Positions 541-55,004 of a DNA stretch of 64,000 nucleotides are shown here, piece by piece. The notes under the pieces are model-generated. The model searched no databases. It was not told the origin of the DNA and saw nothing but the letters and a program-made list of their open reading frames with translations. Source of the DNA: Halomicrobium zhouii (lineage in GTDB: Archaea; Halobacteriota; Halobacteria; Halobacteriales; Haloarculaceae); assembly GCF_900114435.1 (NCBI RefSeq), contig NZ_FOZK01000001.1:372001-436000 (forward strand), read 5' to 3'. How positions within the stretch are numbered: position 1 is the stretch's first letter; each line of letters opens with the position of its first letter. Both the position numbers and the translations under genes were made by a program.

Positions 541-713
541 GGACGAAAAGGGCGAGGGGCGGCTGGCGGCGTAGCCGCCAGCTCATGCGACGGTCGGCGG
601 AGCCGACCGTCCGCTCCGGGAACCCGGGCGCCGCTAGCACCGAAGCGAAGGCAGTGAGCGAGGCGCGCAGCAAGCCCCGGACCGGAGCGCGGCGAGGGCT
701 TTCCTCTCTTTGG
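541..713. repeat. solo hairpin arm of the composite GAAAGGGCGAGG...CGAGGGCTTTC repeat family
   Basis: It begins with AAAGGGCGAGG and ends with GGCGAGGGCTTTC, like the arms of the composite elements near 16.5, 37.0 and 50.7 kb. Inside are nested inverted repeats (GGCTGGCGGC/GCCGCCAGC, GACGGTCGGC/GCCGACCGTC and CGCTCCGG/CCGGAGCG). This fills most of the 473-base gap between the antitoxin remnant and the surface protein; I see no gene there. Confidence 0.6.
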
Positions 714-7562: not shown

Positions 7563-7932
7563 CGTAGTGGTGGTTGTACCTTTGTACCGCCGTTCGGCGG
7601 GCCGGTGCCGGCGAACGCCGATAGACTCGCTGCGCTCGACTGCTGAGCCCCGACTCGCCATGCTCGTCGGGACGCCGACGGACTCGCGCTGCTCGTCCGT
7701 CGAGCCCACGCTCACTCCGTTCGCGTGGACGCCGGCAGACTCACTCCGTTCGTCTCCCGAACCCGGCCTCACGCAGTTCGGCCGGACGCCGGGTGACTCG
7801 CTGCACTCGTCTCCCGAGCCCGGCCCCACACAGTTCGACTGGACGCCATCGGATTCGCGCTGCTCGTCCGATGAGCCCTGTCTCGCTTCGCTCGACAGGA
7901 CGCCAGGACGGGCGTACAATCACCCCTACCAG
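7563..7932. repeat. 57-bp double-hairpin tandem repeat, locus 1, inside inverted ends
   Basis: About five 57-bp units run from about 7614 to 7904, each starting near GACGCC. Every unit holds two hairpins with similar loops (TCGCTGCGCTC-like) and different but complementary stems. Examples are GACGGAC/GTCCGTC, ATCGGA/TCCGAT, CACGC/GCGTG, CCGGCC/GGCCGG and CCTGTC/GACAGG. The block is bordered on the left by AGTGGTGGTTGTAC and on the right by GTACAATCACCCCTA, an imperfect inverted pair. The 19-residue repeat seen when it is translated follows from the 57-bp period and is probably not a protein. Confidence 0.7.
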
Positions 7933-10380: not shown

Positions 10381-10540
10381 CAGTCTGTCCCGTCCCGTGC
10401 AGTCTGTCCCGTTTTGTCCCGTGCAGACCGTCCCGTTCTGTCCCGTGCAGTCTGTCCCGTTCTGTCGTGGGCCGCCGTCCCGTTTTGTCCCGTGCAGACC
10501 GTCCCGTTCTGTCCCGTGCAGACCGTCCCGTTCTGTGCAG
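10381..10540. repeat. 24-bp tandem repeat (CCCGT-rich)
   Basis: About six units of TGTCCCGTGCAG plus ACCGTCCCGTTC, with variants such as TCTGTCCCG and GTTTTGTCCC. Spacers are absent, so this is not a CRISPR. Minus-strand translation gives an octapeptide repeat without other gene signs. Together with the element at 10251 it fills the gap between 10208 and 10645. Confidence 0.75.
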
Positions 10541-10645
10541 CGTCGCCCGAGCGTTAGCCGCTCGCTCTCCCACCCCGTCCAGTTCTCACCGCTGATATTC
10601 TCGCCCCTGTGAGTTATCACTGCTGGCGGTGAGTGGATATCAACG

Positions 10646-16140: not shown

Positions 16141-16645
16141 AACACCCAGAAAGCCCTCGGCCCGCTCGACTCGCGGGACTCGCTGCGCTCCTCGCTCCGC
16201 TGCGGTGCTTGCTTCGTCCGGCATCGTCGACCGTACCTCGCCCTTTCATTCCTCCAGGCCCAGCACAGCACCGCGGCCCTGCCCTTCCCCTGGTCGCGCG
16301 ATGAAACGCGCTCTCACGGCTTCGCCGTTCGAGCAACCGCGGTCGCTTCGCGCCCGCTCAGCTCCCGGCCGGGCGGTTGTGGAGCGGTCAGGAAGCGTGA
16401 CCCGGAGCGGACGCGACGGGTCCGGGGAGGGTTGGTGGTTCTAATCGTGAGCGCGTTTTATCGCGCGAGCGATGCGGAACCTGGAGGACTGAAAGGGCGA
16501 GGCGGGGTCGTCGAAGTCCGAACCCGCAAGCACGCGAGGAACGAGCGCGCGCAGCGGGTTCGCACGAGTCGAGCGCGCCGAGGGCTTTCGAGGTGTTTGT
16601 AGTCTCGATTCTCACTCAAGAGAGCGCGCCGAGGGCTTTCGAGGT
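16141..16645. repeat. composite inverted hairpin element, copy A
   Basis: Left arm 16141-16248 starts AACACCCAGAAAGCCCTCGG and ends CCTCGCCCTTTC. Right arm 16489-16598 starts CTGAAAGGGCGAGG and ends GCCGAGGGCTTTCGAGGTGT. The core between them carries recognisable modules: GGCCCTGCCCTTCCCCTGG, then CCCGGCCGGGCGGTTG, then GGAGCGGTCAGGAAGCGTG, then a GGGGAGG...TGGTGGTTCTAAT block. A second copy of the right terminus sits at 16622-16645. No ORF in the element looks coding. Confidence 0.75.
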
Positions 16646-22529: not shown

Positions 22530-22854
22530 CCGCCTAAGTCTCTCTAGAGTTCACTCACCACTACAATCGAAGCTCCAGAATCAGATACCGCCGGCGAGGC
22601 CCAAGTATAGCATAATAGTAACGGCGACAAAGGCTACCAACTCTTTCCAGTTTGCTTCAGTGAAGGTTTTCAGCCTATAGATCCTCGGATAATCTCTGTT
22701 CTTGCGCCTACCTTTCCGCTTCAATTTCTTAATGCCAAGTAGTGGGTAATCTCGTATAACGGTGGATCCATTGAATTTCTCCCGTACACTGGATGTCTTG
22801 TTAGCTCTGAAGCAATATTATATGGATGGGGATACACGCTTCTTTGGTACGACT

Positions 22855-23910
22855 ATGGCTATGAACCGATCCGAAGCAGTTCAAGAATTAATGAAGCGAA
22901 ATTATGAGGTTGATCCCTTGCAATTTGAACATCTCTGTAAGTTAGTTATTGAGGAGATCGAAAGACCAGAAGGAATCGAAACAACTCGGCGTAGCAAGGA
23001 TGGAGGGATTGATGTTCGAGGGTTTGTCGGTGGAAAGCTCTATAATGGTGAGTTTGGGGTTCAAGTGAAGCAATACGACAGTAAAGTTTCGTCGGGAGCC
23101 GTAAGAGGTCTTGCTGGGTCCCTTCAGAGCGGCGGATGTAGATTTGGGACGCTAATCACTACTTCTTCTTTTACATCGGATGCGATTGCAGAAGTAAATG
23201 ATACTGACAGTTTCTCTCTAGAATTGATAGACGGTGAGGAGCTTGCCGAGCTGATGTTGGACAATGAACTTGGCGTTAAGCAGCAGCCTGGGGAGGATAG
23301 TGAGGAATACATTATCGATCCAGAATTTTGGGGCCGGTTCGAAAAATTCTCTGGAGATTTGATTCCTTCCTGGCAAGTCCCACAAGCAGACTCGGACTTC
23401 ATTCTTGGATTAACGCTTACGGCGGTTAAAAATGGAGTCCGATATAAACCCGAAATTGCCGAATATTTAGCCCGGGAAACTGAGGACAATTGGACACCCC
23501 GTCAAGCAGATTATTATACTACGGCAGGGCAGATCTTGGGGTACTTGGAAGAAGGAAAATCCAATGAAGATAGTCTTGATATGCGTAGGTGGAGTCTTAC
23601 AGAAGCAGGGGATGAATATGTCTCGCTTCGATCAACTGGAAAGGAAGAATTGGCCTCTGACCATCTTGCCCAACGCATTAGCAGGGTAGATATCATCGAA
23701 GAAATTGTATCTGAAGTGAAAGAAGAGTACAAAATCCCAAGATCAAGGGTAGAAGAAATCATTCGTGAAAATACTGAGGTGACAGGAACCACAGTACGGA
23801 GGCGAACTAGCACCGTTGGTAAATGGCTTGGTCGCCATCCAGATGTGAAACGAATGGAATCTGGGATGGTCTGGTTTGAATACTACAAGATGGATCTCAC
23901 TGACTTCTAG
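22855..23910 (+). CDS. Mrr-like restriction endonuclease
   Basis: 351 residues. The N-terminal half is a restriction-endonuclease-like Mrr_cat domain: FEHLCKLVIEEI (about 24-35), KDGGIDVRG with Asp at about 53, then FGVQVKQY with the QxK pair at about 70 and 72. It continues to RGLAGSLQSGGCRFGTLITT and SSFTSDAIAE. The C-terminal half is unassigned and helical (DIIEEIVSEVKEEYKIPRSR, VEEIIRE). Mrr proteins usually cut modified DNA (known). The ATG at 22855 follows a TATA-like AATATTATATGG about 30-40 bases upstream; a longer GTG start at 22762 is possible. It converges with and overlaps the Dam-type methylase by 4 bases. Confidence 0.8.
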   Translation: MAMNRSEAVQELMKRNYEVDPLQFEHLCKLVIEEIERPEGIETTRRSKDGGIDVRGFVGGKLYNGEFGVQVKQYDSKVSSGAVRGLAGSLQSGGCRFGTLITTSSFTSDAIAEVNDTDSFSLELIDGEELAELMLDNELGVKQQPGEDSEEYIIDPEFWGRFEKFSGDLIPSWQVPQADSDFILGLTLTAVKNGVRYKPEIAEYLARETEDNWTPRQADYYTTAGQILGYLEEGKSNEDSLDMRRWSLTEAGDEYVSLRSTGKEELASDHLAQRISRVDIIEEIVSEVKEEYKIPRSRVEEIIRENTEVTGTTVRRRTSTVGKWLGRHPDVKRMESGMVWFEYYKMDLTDF

Positions 23911-34128: not shown

Positions 34129-34180
34129 GTCAGATGAGGCGCCCGCAGCGACGAAAAAGGTGGGGATTCGGGCTATCCAC

Positions 34181-34275
34181 GGGACTGCGTGTGCCTCGAC
34201 GGGACTGCGTGTACCTCGACGGGACTGCGTGTACCTCGACGGGACCGCGTGTACCTCGACGGGACCGCGTGTGCC
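34181..34275. repeat. 20-bp tandem repeat in the leader of the SLC13 gene
   Basis: Five units begin at 34181, 34201, 34221, 34241 and 34261 (the last partial) with consensus GGGACTGCGTGTACCTCGAC; the third and later units carry only one or two changes. The array fills the gap between the stop of the acidic protein gene (34278) and the transporter start, so it lies upstream of the transporter. Confidence 0.8.
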
Positions 34276-34277
34276 AG

Positions 34278-36503
34278 TCAGTCGTCGAGGCTCGCGTACG
34301 TGTCGAGGAAACTGTCTCGGCCGCGAAGCGCGTCGGCGGCGGTGGCGACGGGGTCGACCGTTCGCTCGCCGGCGGGCCGGGCGACGACGAGTTCGACGTC
34401 GTCGCCGTCGATCCGCCACTGGGCGTCTCTGTGCCTGACCAGGACGGCCGCGAAGTAGGCGCCGGCCGCGGTCGCCCGCGCGGTCAGGCGCAGTGACTCG
34501 GGGTCCGTGCCGTCGCCCAGGGGGACGCCGGCCGGGTCCCAGTCCCTGGTCTGGCGCTGGGCAATCTCGTCCAGCGCCCGGACCGACCGCGGCGAGTAAT
34601 CGAGCGGGTACTTCGGCCAGGACTCGACGAACTCGTCGGCCGTGTCGGCGAACTGCGTGATCACGTCCGAGGAGGTGAGCGAGGCGCGGTCGTCGTCGAA
34701 CACGTCGGCGCGGCCGTCGCTGACGGGCTCCTCGTCGGCGTACAGTCGGTTGACCAGCGCGTCGTAGCGGTAGGCGAACGTCGACGGCGGGATCAGACAC
34801 TCCCGGGCGACGTCGAAGACGGCGACCCGTTCGACCTTCTCGCCGACGTCGGGCACCTCGATGGCGCCCTCGCCGTCGTCGGTGGCGACCCACTCGCCGT
34901 CGAGCCACCGGACGAGCACCTCGGCGTAGTAGGTGCCGAGCTGGGCGAGCGGGTCGCCGGTGTCCTCGTGGTCGACGGTCCGGTCGGCCAGGCTACTCGC
35001 GCGGAACCGACCGTCCCACTGGTCCTCGACGAAGGTGTCGAGCCGGGGCAGCGACGCCGGGGTGAAATCGAGGTCCCGCGACGGCCAGCCGTCCGCGAGT
35101 TCCTCCGCGGCCTCACGGAGGACGTACCGTTTCGGCGCCGTCGGCTCGTCCTCCCCGTCGGTGTCGCCACGGGGCGCGTCGGCGTTCGCGGAGGTGGCGC
35201 CACCCAGATCGCTCCCGGCTGGACTGTTCTCGTCTGGACTGTTCCCGGCTGCACTGTCCCCGGTTGGACTGTTGTCGGCTGAACTGTTCCCGGCTGGACT
35301 GTTGCCGTCTGGACTGTCCCCGTCTGGACTGTTCTCGATTGGATTGCTCCCGACTGGTCCGCTCTCGTCGGTCGCGTCGGCCGTGGTGGTGCTCGAAGCG
35401 CCCACGTCGATGCCCGCCGCGTCGTCGCTCGACGACTCCTCGTCGCCTTCCGGCGCCACGTCGCCGACGGCCGAGTCACTGGCTACCTGGCTGGCCACTT
35501 CGTCCGCGAGCCCCGCTGAGGCACCGGTCTCGTCGTCGGTCGCCAGTCCCGACGGGCCGTCGTCGGTCGTCATCGACGCTTCGGAGTCGTCCTCGGTGTC
35601 GGATCCCGTCGCGTCGCTCGACCCGCCGAAGGGCAGGACGCTGGTTCGGTCGTCGGTGTCGTCATCGTCGTCGCCGGCCGTGCCGTCGTCGATGCCGAAC
35701 GCCACGTCGTCCGAACCGACGCCGTCGATTCCCGTCGAGTCCGCGTCGTCCCCGATGTCGGCCCCGACGTCCGTCTCGGGCCCACCGACGTCGCCAGCTC
35801 CGGCGTCGGCCTCGACAGCGGTGCTGTCCTCGGCGGTGCCGTCGGTCACGACCGTGGCGTCCTCGTCGGCCGTACCGCCGTCTTCGTCCCTGGCCGTCCC
35901 ACCGTCCGCTTCGTCGCCCGCCGGGTCGTCGGTGACAGCGGTTTCGGTCGCGGGTTCGCTGCCCGCATCGCTCGCCGTCGAGTCGGTCCTCACGTCCCGT
36001 TTCGGGGCTGCCTCCTCGGGGTCCGGCGGGTTTCCGGGGACGTCGGGCATCCGCACCGCGCCCTCGGCCTCCAGTCGGGCCGTGACCTTGCTGAAGACGG
36101 GGTCGCCTTCGATGGACATCCGTGCGGCGTCGAAGACGGCGACGGTCGTCCGGTCGTCGGCCAGCGCGACGGCCACCTGCCAGCCGTCCTCGTCGGTCCA
36201 CTCGCCGCCGTACTCGCGGACGATGGTCTCGCCGAGGTAACTGCCGTAGGCGACCTCGCCGATGCCGCCCACCGACCCGGTCGCCAGGTCGTCGAGCGCC
36301 GCCAGCGAGTCGACGGTGAAATCCAGCGTCGGCACGTCCGAACGCTTCGCCAGCGTCTCGGCACGCTCGCGAAAGTCCGCCGGCGTCAGGTCTTCGATTC
36401 GGTCGGTTCCCCCGGTCCCCTCTCCGTTGGTCGCGGCATCTTCGGACGACGATGCCCCCTCGCCGTCCCCACCCCGACCGGGGAGAAAGTCGAACACGCC
36501 CAT
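34278..36503 (-). CDS. acidic three-domain repeat protein with pentapeptide linker
   Basis: 741 residues. Three copies of one ~110-residue domain are visible. The first (about 35-160) has LDFTVDSLAALDDLATG, YGSYLGETIVREYGGEW and VAVFDAARM. The second (about 480-610) has LDFTPASLPRLDTF, LGTYYAEVLVRWLDGEW and VAVFDVAREC. The third (about 640-735) has LDYSPRSVRALDEIA and AGAYFAAVLVRHRDAQW. The first two are joined by about 300 residues of Asp/Ser/Thr-rich disorder with a (N/D)SPDG-type pentapeptide tract (positions 35215-35345). Probably cytoplasmic; the domain looks like a DUF3806-type fold but I am not sure. Function unknown. Confidence 0.65.
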   Translation of the reverse strand: MGVFDFLPGRGGDGEGASSSEDAATNGEGTGGTDRIEDLTPADFRERAETLAKRSDVPTLDFTVDSLAALDDLATGSVGGIGEVAYGSYLGETIVREYGGEWTDEDGWQVAVALADDRTTVAVFDAARMSIEGDPVFSKVTARLEAEGAVRMPDVPGNPPDPEEAAPKRDVRTDSTASDAGSEPATETAVTDDPAGDEADGGTARDEDGGTADEDATVVTDGTAEDSTAVEADAGAGDVGGPETDVGADIGDDADSTGIDGVGSDDVAFGIDDGTAGDDDDDTDDRTSVLPFGGSSDATGSDTEDDSEASMTTDDGPSGLATDDETGASAGLADEVASQVASDSAVGDVAPEGDEESSSDDAAGIDVGASSTTTADATDESGPVGSNPIENSPDGDSPDGNSPAGNSSADNSPTGDSAAGNSPDENSPAGSDLGGATSANADAPRGDTDGEDEPTAPKRYVLREAAEELADGWPSRDLDFTPASLPRLDTFVEDQWDGRFRASSLADRTVDHEDTGDPLAQLGTYYAEVLVRWLDGEWVATDDGEGAIEVPDVGEKVERVAVFDVARECLIPPSTFAYRYDALVNRLYADEEPVSDGRADVFDDDRASLTSSDVITQFADTADEFVESWPKYPLDYSPRSVRALDEIAQRQTRDWDPAGVPLGDGTDPESLRLTARATAAGAYFAAVLVRHRDAQWRIDGDDVELVVARPAGERTVDPVATAADALRGRDSFLDTYASLDD

Positions 36504-36693
36504 ATCTCCCCCATTTCATCGGCACACAAGAAACTATCTCCCGATTTCTCGGATATGAAATCTAGGCTAGTGGTCTGTACAGCGATCTGCTGCGAACGAT
36601 GGCGCGACATCGGTTCGACTGCTAATCGCCGACATTGAAGCTACAAATTGAGGAAATCCCTCGGCCCGGTTGCAAGCGTCTGGATAGGAACCG

Positions 36694-37098
36694 TAAACAC
36701 CTCGAAAGCCCTCGGTCCGCTCGACTCGCGGGACTCGCTGCGCTCCTCGCTCCGCTGCGGTGCTTGCTTCGTCCGGCATCGTCGACCGTACCTCGCCCTT
36801 TCAGTCCACCAGTGTCAGCATTGCTCGCGCCATGAAGGCGCTCGCGATTGGAACCACCACTCCTCCCCGAATTCGCGCCGTCCGGCGCGAATCACGCTTC
36901 CCGACCGCTCCGCAACTGCCCGGCCGGGAGCGCGTTTTATCGCGCGACCAGGGGAAGGGCAGGGCTGCGGTAGCGGGCCTGGCGGACTGAAAGGGCGAGG
37001 CGGGCTCCGGGAACCCGGGCGCAGTAAGCACCGCAACGCAGTGAGGAGCGCAGCAAGCCCCGGGACTGGAGCCCGCCGAGGGCTTTCCACTGTTTGCG
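36694..37098. repeat. composite inverted hairpin element, copy B (core inverted)
   Basis: The left arm (AAACACCTCGAAAGCCCTCGG to CCTCGCCCTTTC, 36694-36803) is nearly base-identical to copy A's left arm over about 85 bases. The core, however, is the reverse complement of the core in copies A and C (ATTGGAACCACCACTCCTCC first, CAGGGGAAGGGCAGGGCTG last). The right arm starts ACTGAAAGGGCGAGG and ends CCGAGGGCTTTCC, with GGCGGGCTCC/GGAGCCCGCC pairing. It fills most of the 36504-37205 gap. Confidence 0.75.
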
Positions 37099-37205
37099 GT
37101 ATTGGCACTGACGCCGAGAGCGCGGATCGATGACTTTCCACTACTCTCAGCCAGATCACCAACGCCTAGCGATCACCCGAAAACGTTCCCGGACTAAACA
37201 GAGAG

Positions 37206-48505: not shown

Positions 48506-48601
48506 GTCTGACGATTGGGCGGCCAGCGAGTAAAGGTACTGGGCGTGCGGGGCGGAGCCGCTGCTGGTCGGGCACGGTATCGCGAAGAAACGGGAGTCAG
48601 C

Positions 48602-48780
48602 CGGCGTCCAGTCGAACTGTGTGAGACTGGGCTCGGGAGACGAGTGCAGCGAGTCTCCCGGCGTCCGGCGGAACTGTGTGAGGCCGGGCTCGGGTGACGA
48701 CCAACGGGAGTCAGCCGGCGTCCAGTCGAACTGTGTGAGACTGGGCTCGGGAGACGAGTGCAGCGAGTCTCCCGGCGTCC
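48602..48780. repeat. 57-bp double-hairpin repeat, locus 3 (reverse orientation)
   Basis: Three full units and a 7-base tail, in the opposite orientation to loci 1, 2 and 4. Units 1 and 3 are identical; unit 2 differs in both stems, keeping them paired (CCAGTC/GACTGG against CCGGCC/GGCCGG-like). It lies between the cupin gene and the small zinc protein. Confidence 0.75.
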
Positions 48781-48822
48781 GACCGCTGTCGTAGAACTAC
48801 GGGCGCGTGTGGGCGGCGGGGC

Positions 48823-50423: not shown

Positions 50424-50842
50424 AACAGCCAGAAAGCCCTCGGCGCGCTCCGGTCCCGCGGACCTCCTGTGCTCCTCGCTACGCTCCGGTGCTTGAAGGT
50501 CCGGGGTTCCCGGACCCCGCCTCGCCCTTTCATCCACCAGGCACAGCACCGCAGCCCTGCCCTTCCCCTGGTCGGCCGACGAGACGGCCTCCCGGCCGGG
50601 CGGTTGCGGAGCGGTCAGGAAGCGTGTCGCGCCGCCAGGCGCGACCGGGGAGGGGTGGCGGAGCCAATCGCGAGTGCGTGCCGAACGGAGTGAGGCAGCG
50701 CGAGCGACGGCTGTCCCTGGGGGACTGAAAGGGCGAGGTGGGGTCGCGCTGCAAGGCAGTCGCTCAGCGGGCCCTACCCGAACGCACGTGAGGGTATCCC
50801 GCTGAGCGACCGCGAGCCCGCCGAGGGCTTTCGAGGTGTTTA
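50424..50842. repeat. composite inverted hairpin element, copy C
   Basis: The left arm (CAGCCAGAAAGCCCTCGGCG to CCTCGCCCTTTC) has GGTCCGGGGTTC-type inner pairs. The core is in the same orientation as copy A (GCAGCCCTGCCCTTCCCCTG, CCCGGCCGGGCGGTTG, GGAGCGGTCAGGAAGCGTG, GAGGGGTGGCGGAGCCAATC). The right arm (GACTGAAAGGGCGAGG to GAGGGCTTTCGAGGTGTTTA) includes a perfect 13-bp hairpin GTCGCTCAGCGGG/CCCGCTGAGCGAC. It fills the 50263-50942 gap. Confidence 0.75.
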
Positions 50843-54752: not shown

Positions 54753-55004
54753 TAGTGGTAGTTGTAACGTTGTACCGGCGTTCGCCGGTACCGGCCACGT
54801 CGAACGCCGGGAGACTCGCTGCACTCGTCTCTCGAGCCCAGTCTCACACAGTTCGGCCGGACGCCGGCTGACTCGCTGCACTCGTCTCCCGAGCCCAGTC
54901 TCACACAGTTCGACTGGACGCCGGCTGACTCCCGTTGGTCGTCACCCGAGCCCACGCTCACTCCGTTCGCGTGGACGCCGGTACGGGCTTACAACTACTA
55001 CTGT
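54752..55004. repeat. 57-bp double-hairpin repeat, locus 4, with inverted ends
   Basis: Left end AGTGGTAGTTGTAACG (54755); right end CTTACAACTACTACTGTGAG (54989), its imperfect reverse complement. Between them are three full units (54802-54979) with paired stems CCAGTC/GACTGG, CGGCCGGAC-type arms and CACGC/GCGTG. It overlaps the end of the CPBP gene's downstream region and the start of the gap to 55077. Confidence 0.75.

What the first reader, a model, noticed from the sequence alone, without database searches (positions are those of the whole stretch)
36694..37098. Core of copy B is inverted relative to its left arm
The left arms of copies A and B are nearly identical over about 85 bases and in the same orientation, yet the core of B is the reverse complement of A's and C's core. 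Recombination between the two inverted arms of one element would do exactly this. The element may therefore be an invertible segment.
Basis: partly seen in the sequence, partly recalled or inferred. Interest (0 to 1): 0.6.

Follow-up and report, generated by a model that had tools for sequence, protein, structure and literature searches.

The report
Shuffling hairpin repeats between haloarchaeal genes
The repeat is one copy of a family of folded, non-coding DNA elements that sit at the same gene-to-gene gaps in two sister salt-loving archaea, yet whose contents have been swapped and occasionally turned around, so it looks like a recombination hot spot and not a programmed DNA switch.

Summary
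B's core is the reverse complement of A's and C's, and the left arms of A and B are 99% identical. The polarity was misread. Across 107 copies from two genomes, the two arms of an element are of different types, tied to core orientation (Fisher p=1.6e-26). B obeys the rule and simply lies reversed; A is the exception. A's left arm is a copy of a "3'-type" arm, while A's core still matches its sister-species counterpart best (rank 1 of 55; arms rank 41 and 37).

Inversion does happen. At 35 shared sites, 31 copies keep their orientation and 4 are flipped, B among them: arms and core turned between unturned outer repeats. That is evolutionary flipping, not shown switching within a culture.

The larger finding: element content at shared sites is no more alike than between random copies, while flanks align mostly at 90-95%, and arms and cores turn over separately. 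I read it as a roughly 0.5-kb composite of two inverted hairpin repeats around a structured core, shuffled by recombination among some 70 copies per genome. It resembles REPIN/BIME-type repeats but is not shown to belong to them.

The parts
36705..36802 (-). Copy B, left arm in the window: a 3'-type (C-TC) hairpin arm; the element lies on the minus strand
   Evidence: motif positions of L001; arm class; 99% identical to A's left arm
36803..36988 (-). Copy B, core, reverse complement of the A and C cores
   Evidence: inverted repeats I6, I8, I14; core orientation scores 21 vs 116
36989..37086 (-). Copy B, right arm in the window: a 5'-type (G-TC) hairpin arm
36654..36704 (.). Outer repeat left of B, a decayed tandem copy of the end (about 51 bp); not inverted relative to the sister species
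37087..37140 (.). Outer repeat right of B, also not inverted relative to the sister species
16150..16247 (+). Copy A, left arm: a 3'-type arm in the 5' place (the exception)
16248..16490 (+). Copy A, core; best match of 55 to the core at the same site in G006
16491..16588 (+). Copy A, right arm (3'-type)
16589..16639 (+). Copy A, tandem duplication of the right end, 51 bp
50433..50531 (+). Copy C, left arm (5'-type)
50532..50726 (+). Copy C, core
50727..50831 (+). Copy C, right arm (long-hairpin type with GGATAYCC)
546..702 (+). Lone arm of the same family, without a recognised partner arm
   Evidence: dropped from the 107 counted copies

Best explanation
A, B and C are copies of an intergenic, non-coding composite repeat: two inverted hairpin 'arms' of about 98 nt around a structured core, usually about 190-250 nt, with further end sequences outside (about 0.5 kb in all). 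Perfect outer (11-bp) and inner (13-bp) inverted motifs plus the two arm hairpins would let one strand fold into a four-way junction (my reading of the sequence). Shown: the anatomy, the arm polarity, occupation of the same sites in the sister species, loss of similarity of the contents at those sites, four flips, and arm copies shared between unlinked elements, some of them inverted. Inferred: the contents are exchanged among copies by ectopic homologous recombination or gene conversion through the shared arm and end sequences. Because arms and ends are inverted repeats, an exchange in inverted alignment now and then reverses an arm, the core or the whole inner unit. B is a canonical element that is inverted relative to its sister-species counterpart; A is an element whose left arm was overwritten by a 3'-type arm. 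There is no sign of a programmed switch.
For: Arm type follows core orientation in 107 copies (84 G / 10 C at 5' arms, 9 G / 68 C at 3' arms, p=1.6e-26). A's left arm equals B's 3' arm and L009's 5' arm at 99% and the next listed matches are all 3' arms; A's core ranks 1 of 55 and its arms 41 and 37 against the same site in G006. Partial near-identical tracts between unlinked copies, never the whole element, some on opposite strands (L020/L035, L089/L115). At 35 shared sites content ranks at chance (medians 22, 28, 29; chance 28), with all three modules retained at 0, two at 2, one at 6, none at 27. Orientation same at 31, flipped at 4 of 35. At B the outer repeats are unturned and the arms plus core turned.
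Against: Near-identical tracts are not clearly commoner within a genome (7 of 1326 and 4 of 1485 pairs) than between genomes (7 of 2860), which ongoing conversion would predict. The end sequences hardly keep orthology either, although conversion should spare the edges of homology. The 35 shared sites were found by comparing element-bearing loci, so occupancy is ascertained; one independently tested site (L013) has no element in G006. No strain-level comparison or reads were available.
Confidence: 0.6

Rival explanations
1. The element is an actively invertible DNA segment (phase-variable switch): recombination at the inverted arms, with or without a dedicated recombinase, keeps both orientations in a population.
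For: Inverted repeats flank the core; B and 3 other sites are flipped between sister species; a few copies have arms reversed against the core.
Against: 31 of 35 sites keep orientation; contents, not only orientation, change; the genes beside B are a DEAD/DEAH-box helicase and a protein without a Pfam match, no recombinase (only 8 window proteins were scanned); the A/B contrast is explained by arm replacement at A.
Confidence: 0.07
2. The elements are mobile and re-insert into, or replace each other at, fixed target sites (non-autonomous transposition or cassette exchange), so that the same addresses hold unrelated copies.
For: Abrupt loss of similarity at the element boundary in most printed alignments; end sequences also unrelated at shared sites; patchy distribution across genomes; small hairpins nested in arms.
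Against: Modules turn over separately and shared near-identical tracts are partial; tandem end repeats look shared by descent at some sites, e.g. L011/L085; no autonomous partner found among Y1 transposase loci; no clean empty site seen.
Confidence: 0.2
3. Each element is a gene for a large structured RNA whose fold, not sequence, is under selection, so that rapid divergence with compensation is enough to explain the lost similarity.
For: Strong covariation: 17 covarying pairs in 162 arms, 13 of 34 pairs with two or more Watson-Crick types in 74 cores. Wobble is G-U and not A-C on one strand (arms 160 vs 23; core 39 vs 3). The plus strand folds more stably in 73 of 104 elements (p=5e-7).
Against: The two arms of one element prefer opposite strands, which does not fit one transcript. 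No Rfam match. Contexts are mixed (24 convergent, 13 divergent, 27 tandem of 64). Hairpins acting in single-stranded DNA would leave the same G-T signature. Near-identical arms at unlinked sites need exchange, not only divergence.
Confidence: 0.1

Closest known systems
REP / REPIN elements and BIMEs of bacteria (features recalled; PMC3116915 and PMC2817692 seen only as search listings with the start of the abstract)
   Same: Intergenic, many copies per genome, palindromic units paired in inverted orientation, mosaic of modules.
   Different: About 0.5 kb instead of short doublets, arms of about 98 nt, a separate structured core, and contents that are unrelated at the same site in a sister species. 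A RAYT-type partner gene was not established.
BOX-type modular repeats of bacteria (recalled, nothing read)
   Same: Modular intergenic repeats able to fold as stem-loops.
   Different: Two inverted hairpin arms around a core; no sequence relation was tested.
MITEs (haloarchaeal MITE papers PMC3119063 and PMC10264941 seen only as search listings)
   Same: Small, non-coding, with inverted repeats, patchy across genomes.
   Different: No autonomous partner or target duplication found; long structured interior with compensatory changes; same sites occupied in sister species.
Invertible DNA segments (phase-variation switches; recalled)
   Same: Inverted repeats flank a segment found in both orientations across relatives.
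   Different: Orientation mostly fixed, no recombinase among the adjacent genes examined, all modules exchanged.

Membership tests
Invertible DNA segment | Inverted repeats bound the segment | tested here: met
   Inner and outer inverted motifs and arm-arm inverted repeat I7
Invertible DNA segment | Same locus in both orientations in relatives | tested here: inconclusive
   4 of 35 shared sites flipped, 31 not; contents differ too, so replacement is not excluded
Invertible DNA segment | Both orientations within one culture | not testable with these tools
   no reads held
Invertible DNA segment | Dedicated recombinase nearby | tested here: not met
   Pfam of the two genes beside B: helicase and no match; the rest of the genome was not searched for recombinases
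REPIN / RAYT | Two palindromic units in inverted orientation | tested here: met
REPIN / RAYT | Short units of about 20-30 nt with a conserved tetranucleotide foot (recalled) | tested here: not met
   arms about 98 nt with an AAAGCCCTCGG / CCTCGCCCTTTC foot
REPIN / RAYT | RAYT-type Y1 transposase in the genome | tested here: inconclusive
   Y1_Tnp matches: 4 in G000 (two of them pieces of one broken gene), 1 in G006; subtype not determined; none beside an element in G000 or G006
MITE | Target-site duplication at clean empty sites | tested here: inconclusive
   no clean empty site found; L013 site holds unrelated sequence in G006
MITE | Autonomous transposon with the same ends | tested here: inconclusive
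   only Y1 transposase loci of six genomes were scanned; one arm-like match near a Y1 gene in G004
Known structured RNA (Rfam) | Match to a family model at gathering score | tested here: not met
   only two tRNAs in the window; best permissive match at B 19.5 bits against a cut-off of 89

The most novel reading that the evidence does not exclude
A haloarchaeal class of element in which fixed intergenic sites hold combinatorial hairpin cassettes that are actively reshuffled, by a dedicated or strongly structure-driven recombination process, much faster than the surrounding genome evolves. Orientation is largely held and inversion is an occasional by-product.
Probability: 0.2. Interest if true: 0.85.

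Novelty: new variant of a known kind. Interest (0 to 1): 0.55.

Why it matters
Elements at the same addresses in two species normally resemble each other as much as their flanks do. Here the flanks align mostly at 90-95% and the contents are unrelated beyond family likeness, module by module, with the fold preserved by compensatory changes. If this is recombination among dispersed copies, these elements are a natural measuring device for ectopic exchange, and perhaps for genome rearrangement, in archaea. They would also be an unusually complex relative in style of REPIN/BIME repeats. The strand-specific wobble signal poses a testable question: which single-stranded nucleic acid is being recognised?

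Tried and rejected
Core inversion at B: rejected as the cause of the A/B contrast. A clean empty site: the L018 and L030 sites are occupied in G006 and the L013 site holds unrelated sequence. An autonomous transposon with the same ends: Y1 transposase loci of the five genomes with a match (six searched) were scanned, one arm-like match near a Y1 gene in G004 only. Known RNA family: none. Phages: no match. Replication of the shared-site analysis in the Halosimplex-like genomes G128 and G130: 20 and 15 loci fetched, mostly single-arm forms, only one convincing shared site, so not informative. An excess of near-identical tracts within a genome over between genomes, expected under ongoing conversion, was not clear. 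Literature: searches found no description of this repeat; of the papers, passages of PMC12306157 and PMC3404096 were seen, all others only as search listings.

Rows dropped before counts: of 115 loci given to, 7 gave no arm pair (L017, W0, L107, L111, L112, L113, L117) and L027 duplicates copy C, leaving 107. These are 52 of about 70 copies in G000 and 55 of about 67 in G006, the totals being estimated from the motif counts. One search used 104 of them, one search used 91 5' arms, 93 3' arms and 74 cores within set length limits, one search used 162 arms, one search used 64 loci. One search's zone means use the 31 same-orientation sites (29-31 values per zone). Arm classes are by simple motif rules and some arms stay unclassified.

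Full report
What is there. The finding's interval 36694-37098 is copy B of a repeat that occurs at least three times in the window: A 16150-16588, B 36705-37086, C 50433-50831. A lone arm lies at 546-702. The window is G000:C1:372001-436000 of a 4.25-Mb genome of a haloarchaeon near Haloarcula and its relatives, judging by the hits to the gene beside B. The inner arm motif CCTCGCCCTTTCANTCC, with one mismatch allowed, occurs 70 times on each strand of that genome against 0 for the reversed-pattern control. Exact matches are 66+67 in one congener (G006) and 0 in the five others of the genus examined. A contig length of G006 (192,600) equals that of JAOPKE010000008.1, Halobacteria archaeon HArc-gm2, so G006 is probably that genome (inference).

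Anatomy. I collected 107 copies (52 from G000, 55 from G006). From outside to inside, each has an end sequence, AAAGCCCTCGG, a hairpin arm (about 98 nt in all), CCTCGCCCTTTCA, a core, and then the mirror image. The conserved 5' end region starts about 62 nt outside the first motif (TGTGWACTGA...). The 3' end region runs about 88 nt beyond the last one (...CTGTACTGACCA). Tandem copies of the end, mostly 51 bp apart, are common. Outer and inner inverted motifs plus the two arm hairpins allow a four-way junction; this is my reading of the sequence, not a computed optimum. Folding supports stems in the arms and the core with abundant compensatory change: 17 covarying pairs in 162 arms, and 13 of 34 core pairs with two or more Watson-Crick types in 74 cores. 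Departures from Watson-Crick pairing are G-U and not A-C on the outward-reading strand of the arms (160 vs 23; the structure computed from the other strand gives 17 vs 105 on that strand), and on the plus strand of the core (39 vs 3). The two arms of one element therefore favour opposite strands, which argues against one transcript and for hairpins recognised separately as RNA or single-stranded DNA. Copies lie between genes: of the 64 with usable context, 24 sit between convergent genes, 13 between divergent and 27 between tandem ones (genes were called by a crude codon-position rule, which also lets some calls overlap the ends).

With all cores turned the same way, the base pair next to the arm's internal loop is G-C in 5' arms (84 of 107, 10 reversed, 13 unclassified) and C-G in 3' arms (68 of 107, 9 reversed, 21 long-hairpin type, 9 unclassified). 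The Fisher test on the classified ones gives p=1.6e-26; the rule was framed on the same copies it was counted on. B fits: it is an ordinary element lying on the minus strand. A does not: its 5' arm is of 3' type and is 99% identical to B's 3' arm and to the 5' arm of L009; the next six matches listed among 213 arms are all 3' arms. At A's site in G006 (L097) the arms are canonical, and A's core is still the best match of 55 to L097's core while its arms rank 41 and 37. So A's arms were replaced and B's core was not inverted within its arms. Other inverted arm transfers are visible as near-identical tracts on opposite strands (L020/L035, L089/L115).

Does anything invert? Flank comparison gave 35 sites that carry an element in both G000 and G006. 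Orientation relative to the flanks is the same at 31 and opposite at 4: B/L071, L014/L093, L015/L064, L047/L102. Two further sites found by search, L018 and L030, are occupied in the same orientation (the frame of those loci was worked out by hand). At B the outer repeats align without inversion, while arms and core are turned, as exchange at the end repeats would do. The L047/L102 flip is weaker, because L102 is heavily modified.

The larger result. At the 35 shared sites the contents are not orthologous in any ordinary sense. Mean gap-free identities at the 31 same-orientation sites against shuffled partners are: core 0.880 vs 0.872, arms 0.846 vs 0.837 and 0.842 vs 0.836, ends 0.817 vs 0.793 and 0.807 vs 0.801. 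The core and 5'-end values reach the top of the 60 shuffles, so a trace of descent remains. The long flank matches run mostly at 90-95%, with a few near 83%, and similarity drops abruptly at the element boundary in several of the alignments printed, L026/L095 most clearly, while L009/L098 stays alike into the element. Ranked among all 55 G006 copies, the orthologous copy sits near chance (median rank: core 22, arms 28 and 29; chance 28). What is retained is single modules: no pair keeps all three in the top 3, 2 keep two, 6 keep one, 27 none. A nested double-hairpin insert is present in 16 of 107 copies and at 9 shared sites in one species only, never in both. I infer module-wise exchange among copies. 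Against this, near-identical tracts are not clearly commoner within than between genomes, and one tested site (L013) holds no element in G006.

Range. The outer motif occurs in 45 of 146 genomes of the family, with tens of copies in several genomes of genus g14. Fetched loci from G128 and G130 look mostly like single-arm forms. G004 holds at least one full-length relative, G002 an arm-arm form with a very short core, and G005 and Haloarcula amylolytica single arms. Of 80 named loci around the gene beside B, only the G006-like record carries an element at that site, and L127 has a lone arm on the other side of the gene. Arm-like DNA is also found in 60 plasmid records.

Comparison. The style is that of REP/REPIN/BIME repeats: paired inverted hairpins, intergenic, many copies. 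Size and hairpin foot do not fit (these features of REPINs are recalled), and a RAYT-type partner was not established, so I do not file it there. It is not a known Rfam RNA. Seven literature searches did not turn up a description. Most subscription papers are not in that library, so absence there is weak evidence.

Verdict.

Noticed in passing
L219 1498-1626, L220-L223 near 1000-1120: An arm-like hairpin followed by a long structured-looking non-coding stretch recurs at similar gene contexts on megaplasmids of Halobacterium, Halorhabdus, Haloplanus, Halapricum and Halomicrobium; 60 plasmid records match in all. It may be a conserved plasmid RNA or DNA structure.
   Followed up: partly
L024, L025, L030, L031, L108, L109, L114, L120 (arms): Small double-hairpin inserts sit inside arm hairpins, in both orientations: mini-elements nested inside the element.
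   Followed up: partly
L011 against L085 and L088: The two flanks of one G000 copy match two different G006 copies on different contigs, as a rearrangement between copies, or an assembly join at a repeat, would give.
   Followed up: no
window 7615-7919, 48586-48785, 54798-54994: Another repeat family made of 57-nt units, in both orientations across the window.
   Followed up: no
window 34176-34275, 35183-35392 and 10382-10571: Tandem arrays of 20-nt, 15-nt and about 24-nt units; the first two lie in the open frame 34278-36503 or beside it.
   Followed up: no
window 22762-23910: Gene with an Mrr-type restriction endonuclease domain and a DUF7226 domain.
   Followed up: no
both sides of many copies, e.g. 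window 16578-16639; L011, L045, L083, L093: Tandem duplication of the element's end, mostly 51 bp (50-54) and 57 bp in the Halosimplex-like genomes, up to three or four copies on one side.
   Followed up: partly
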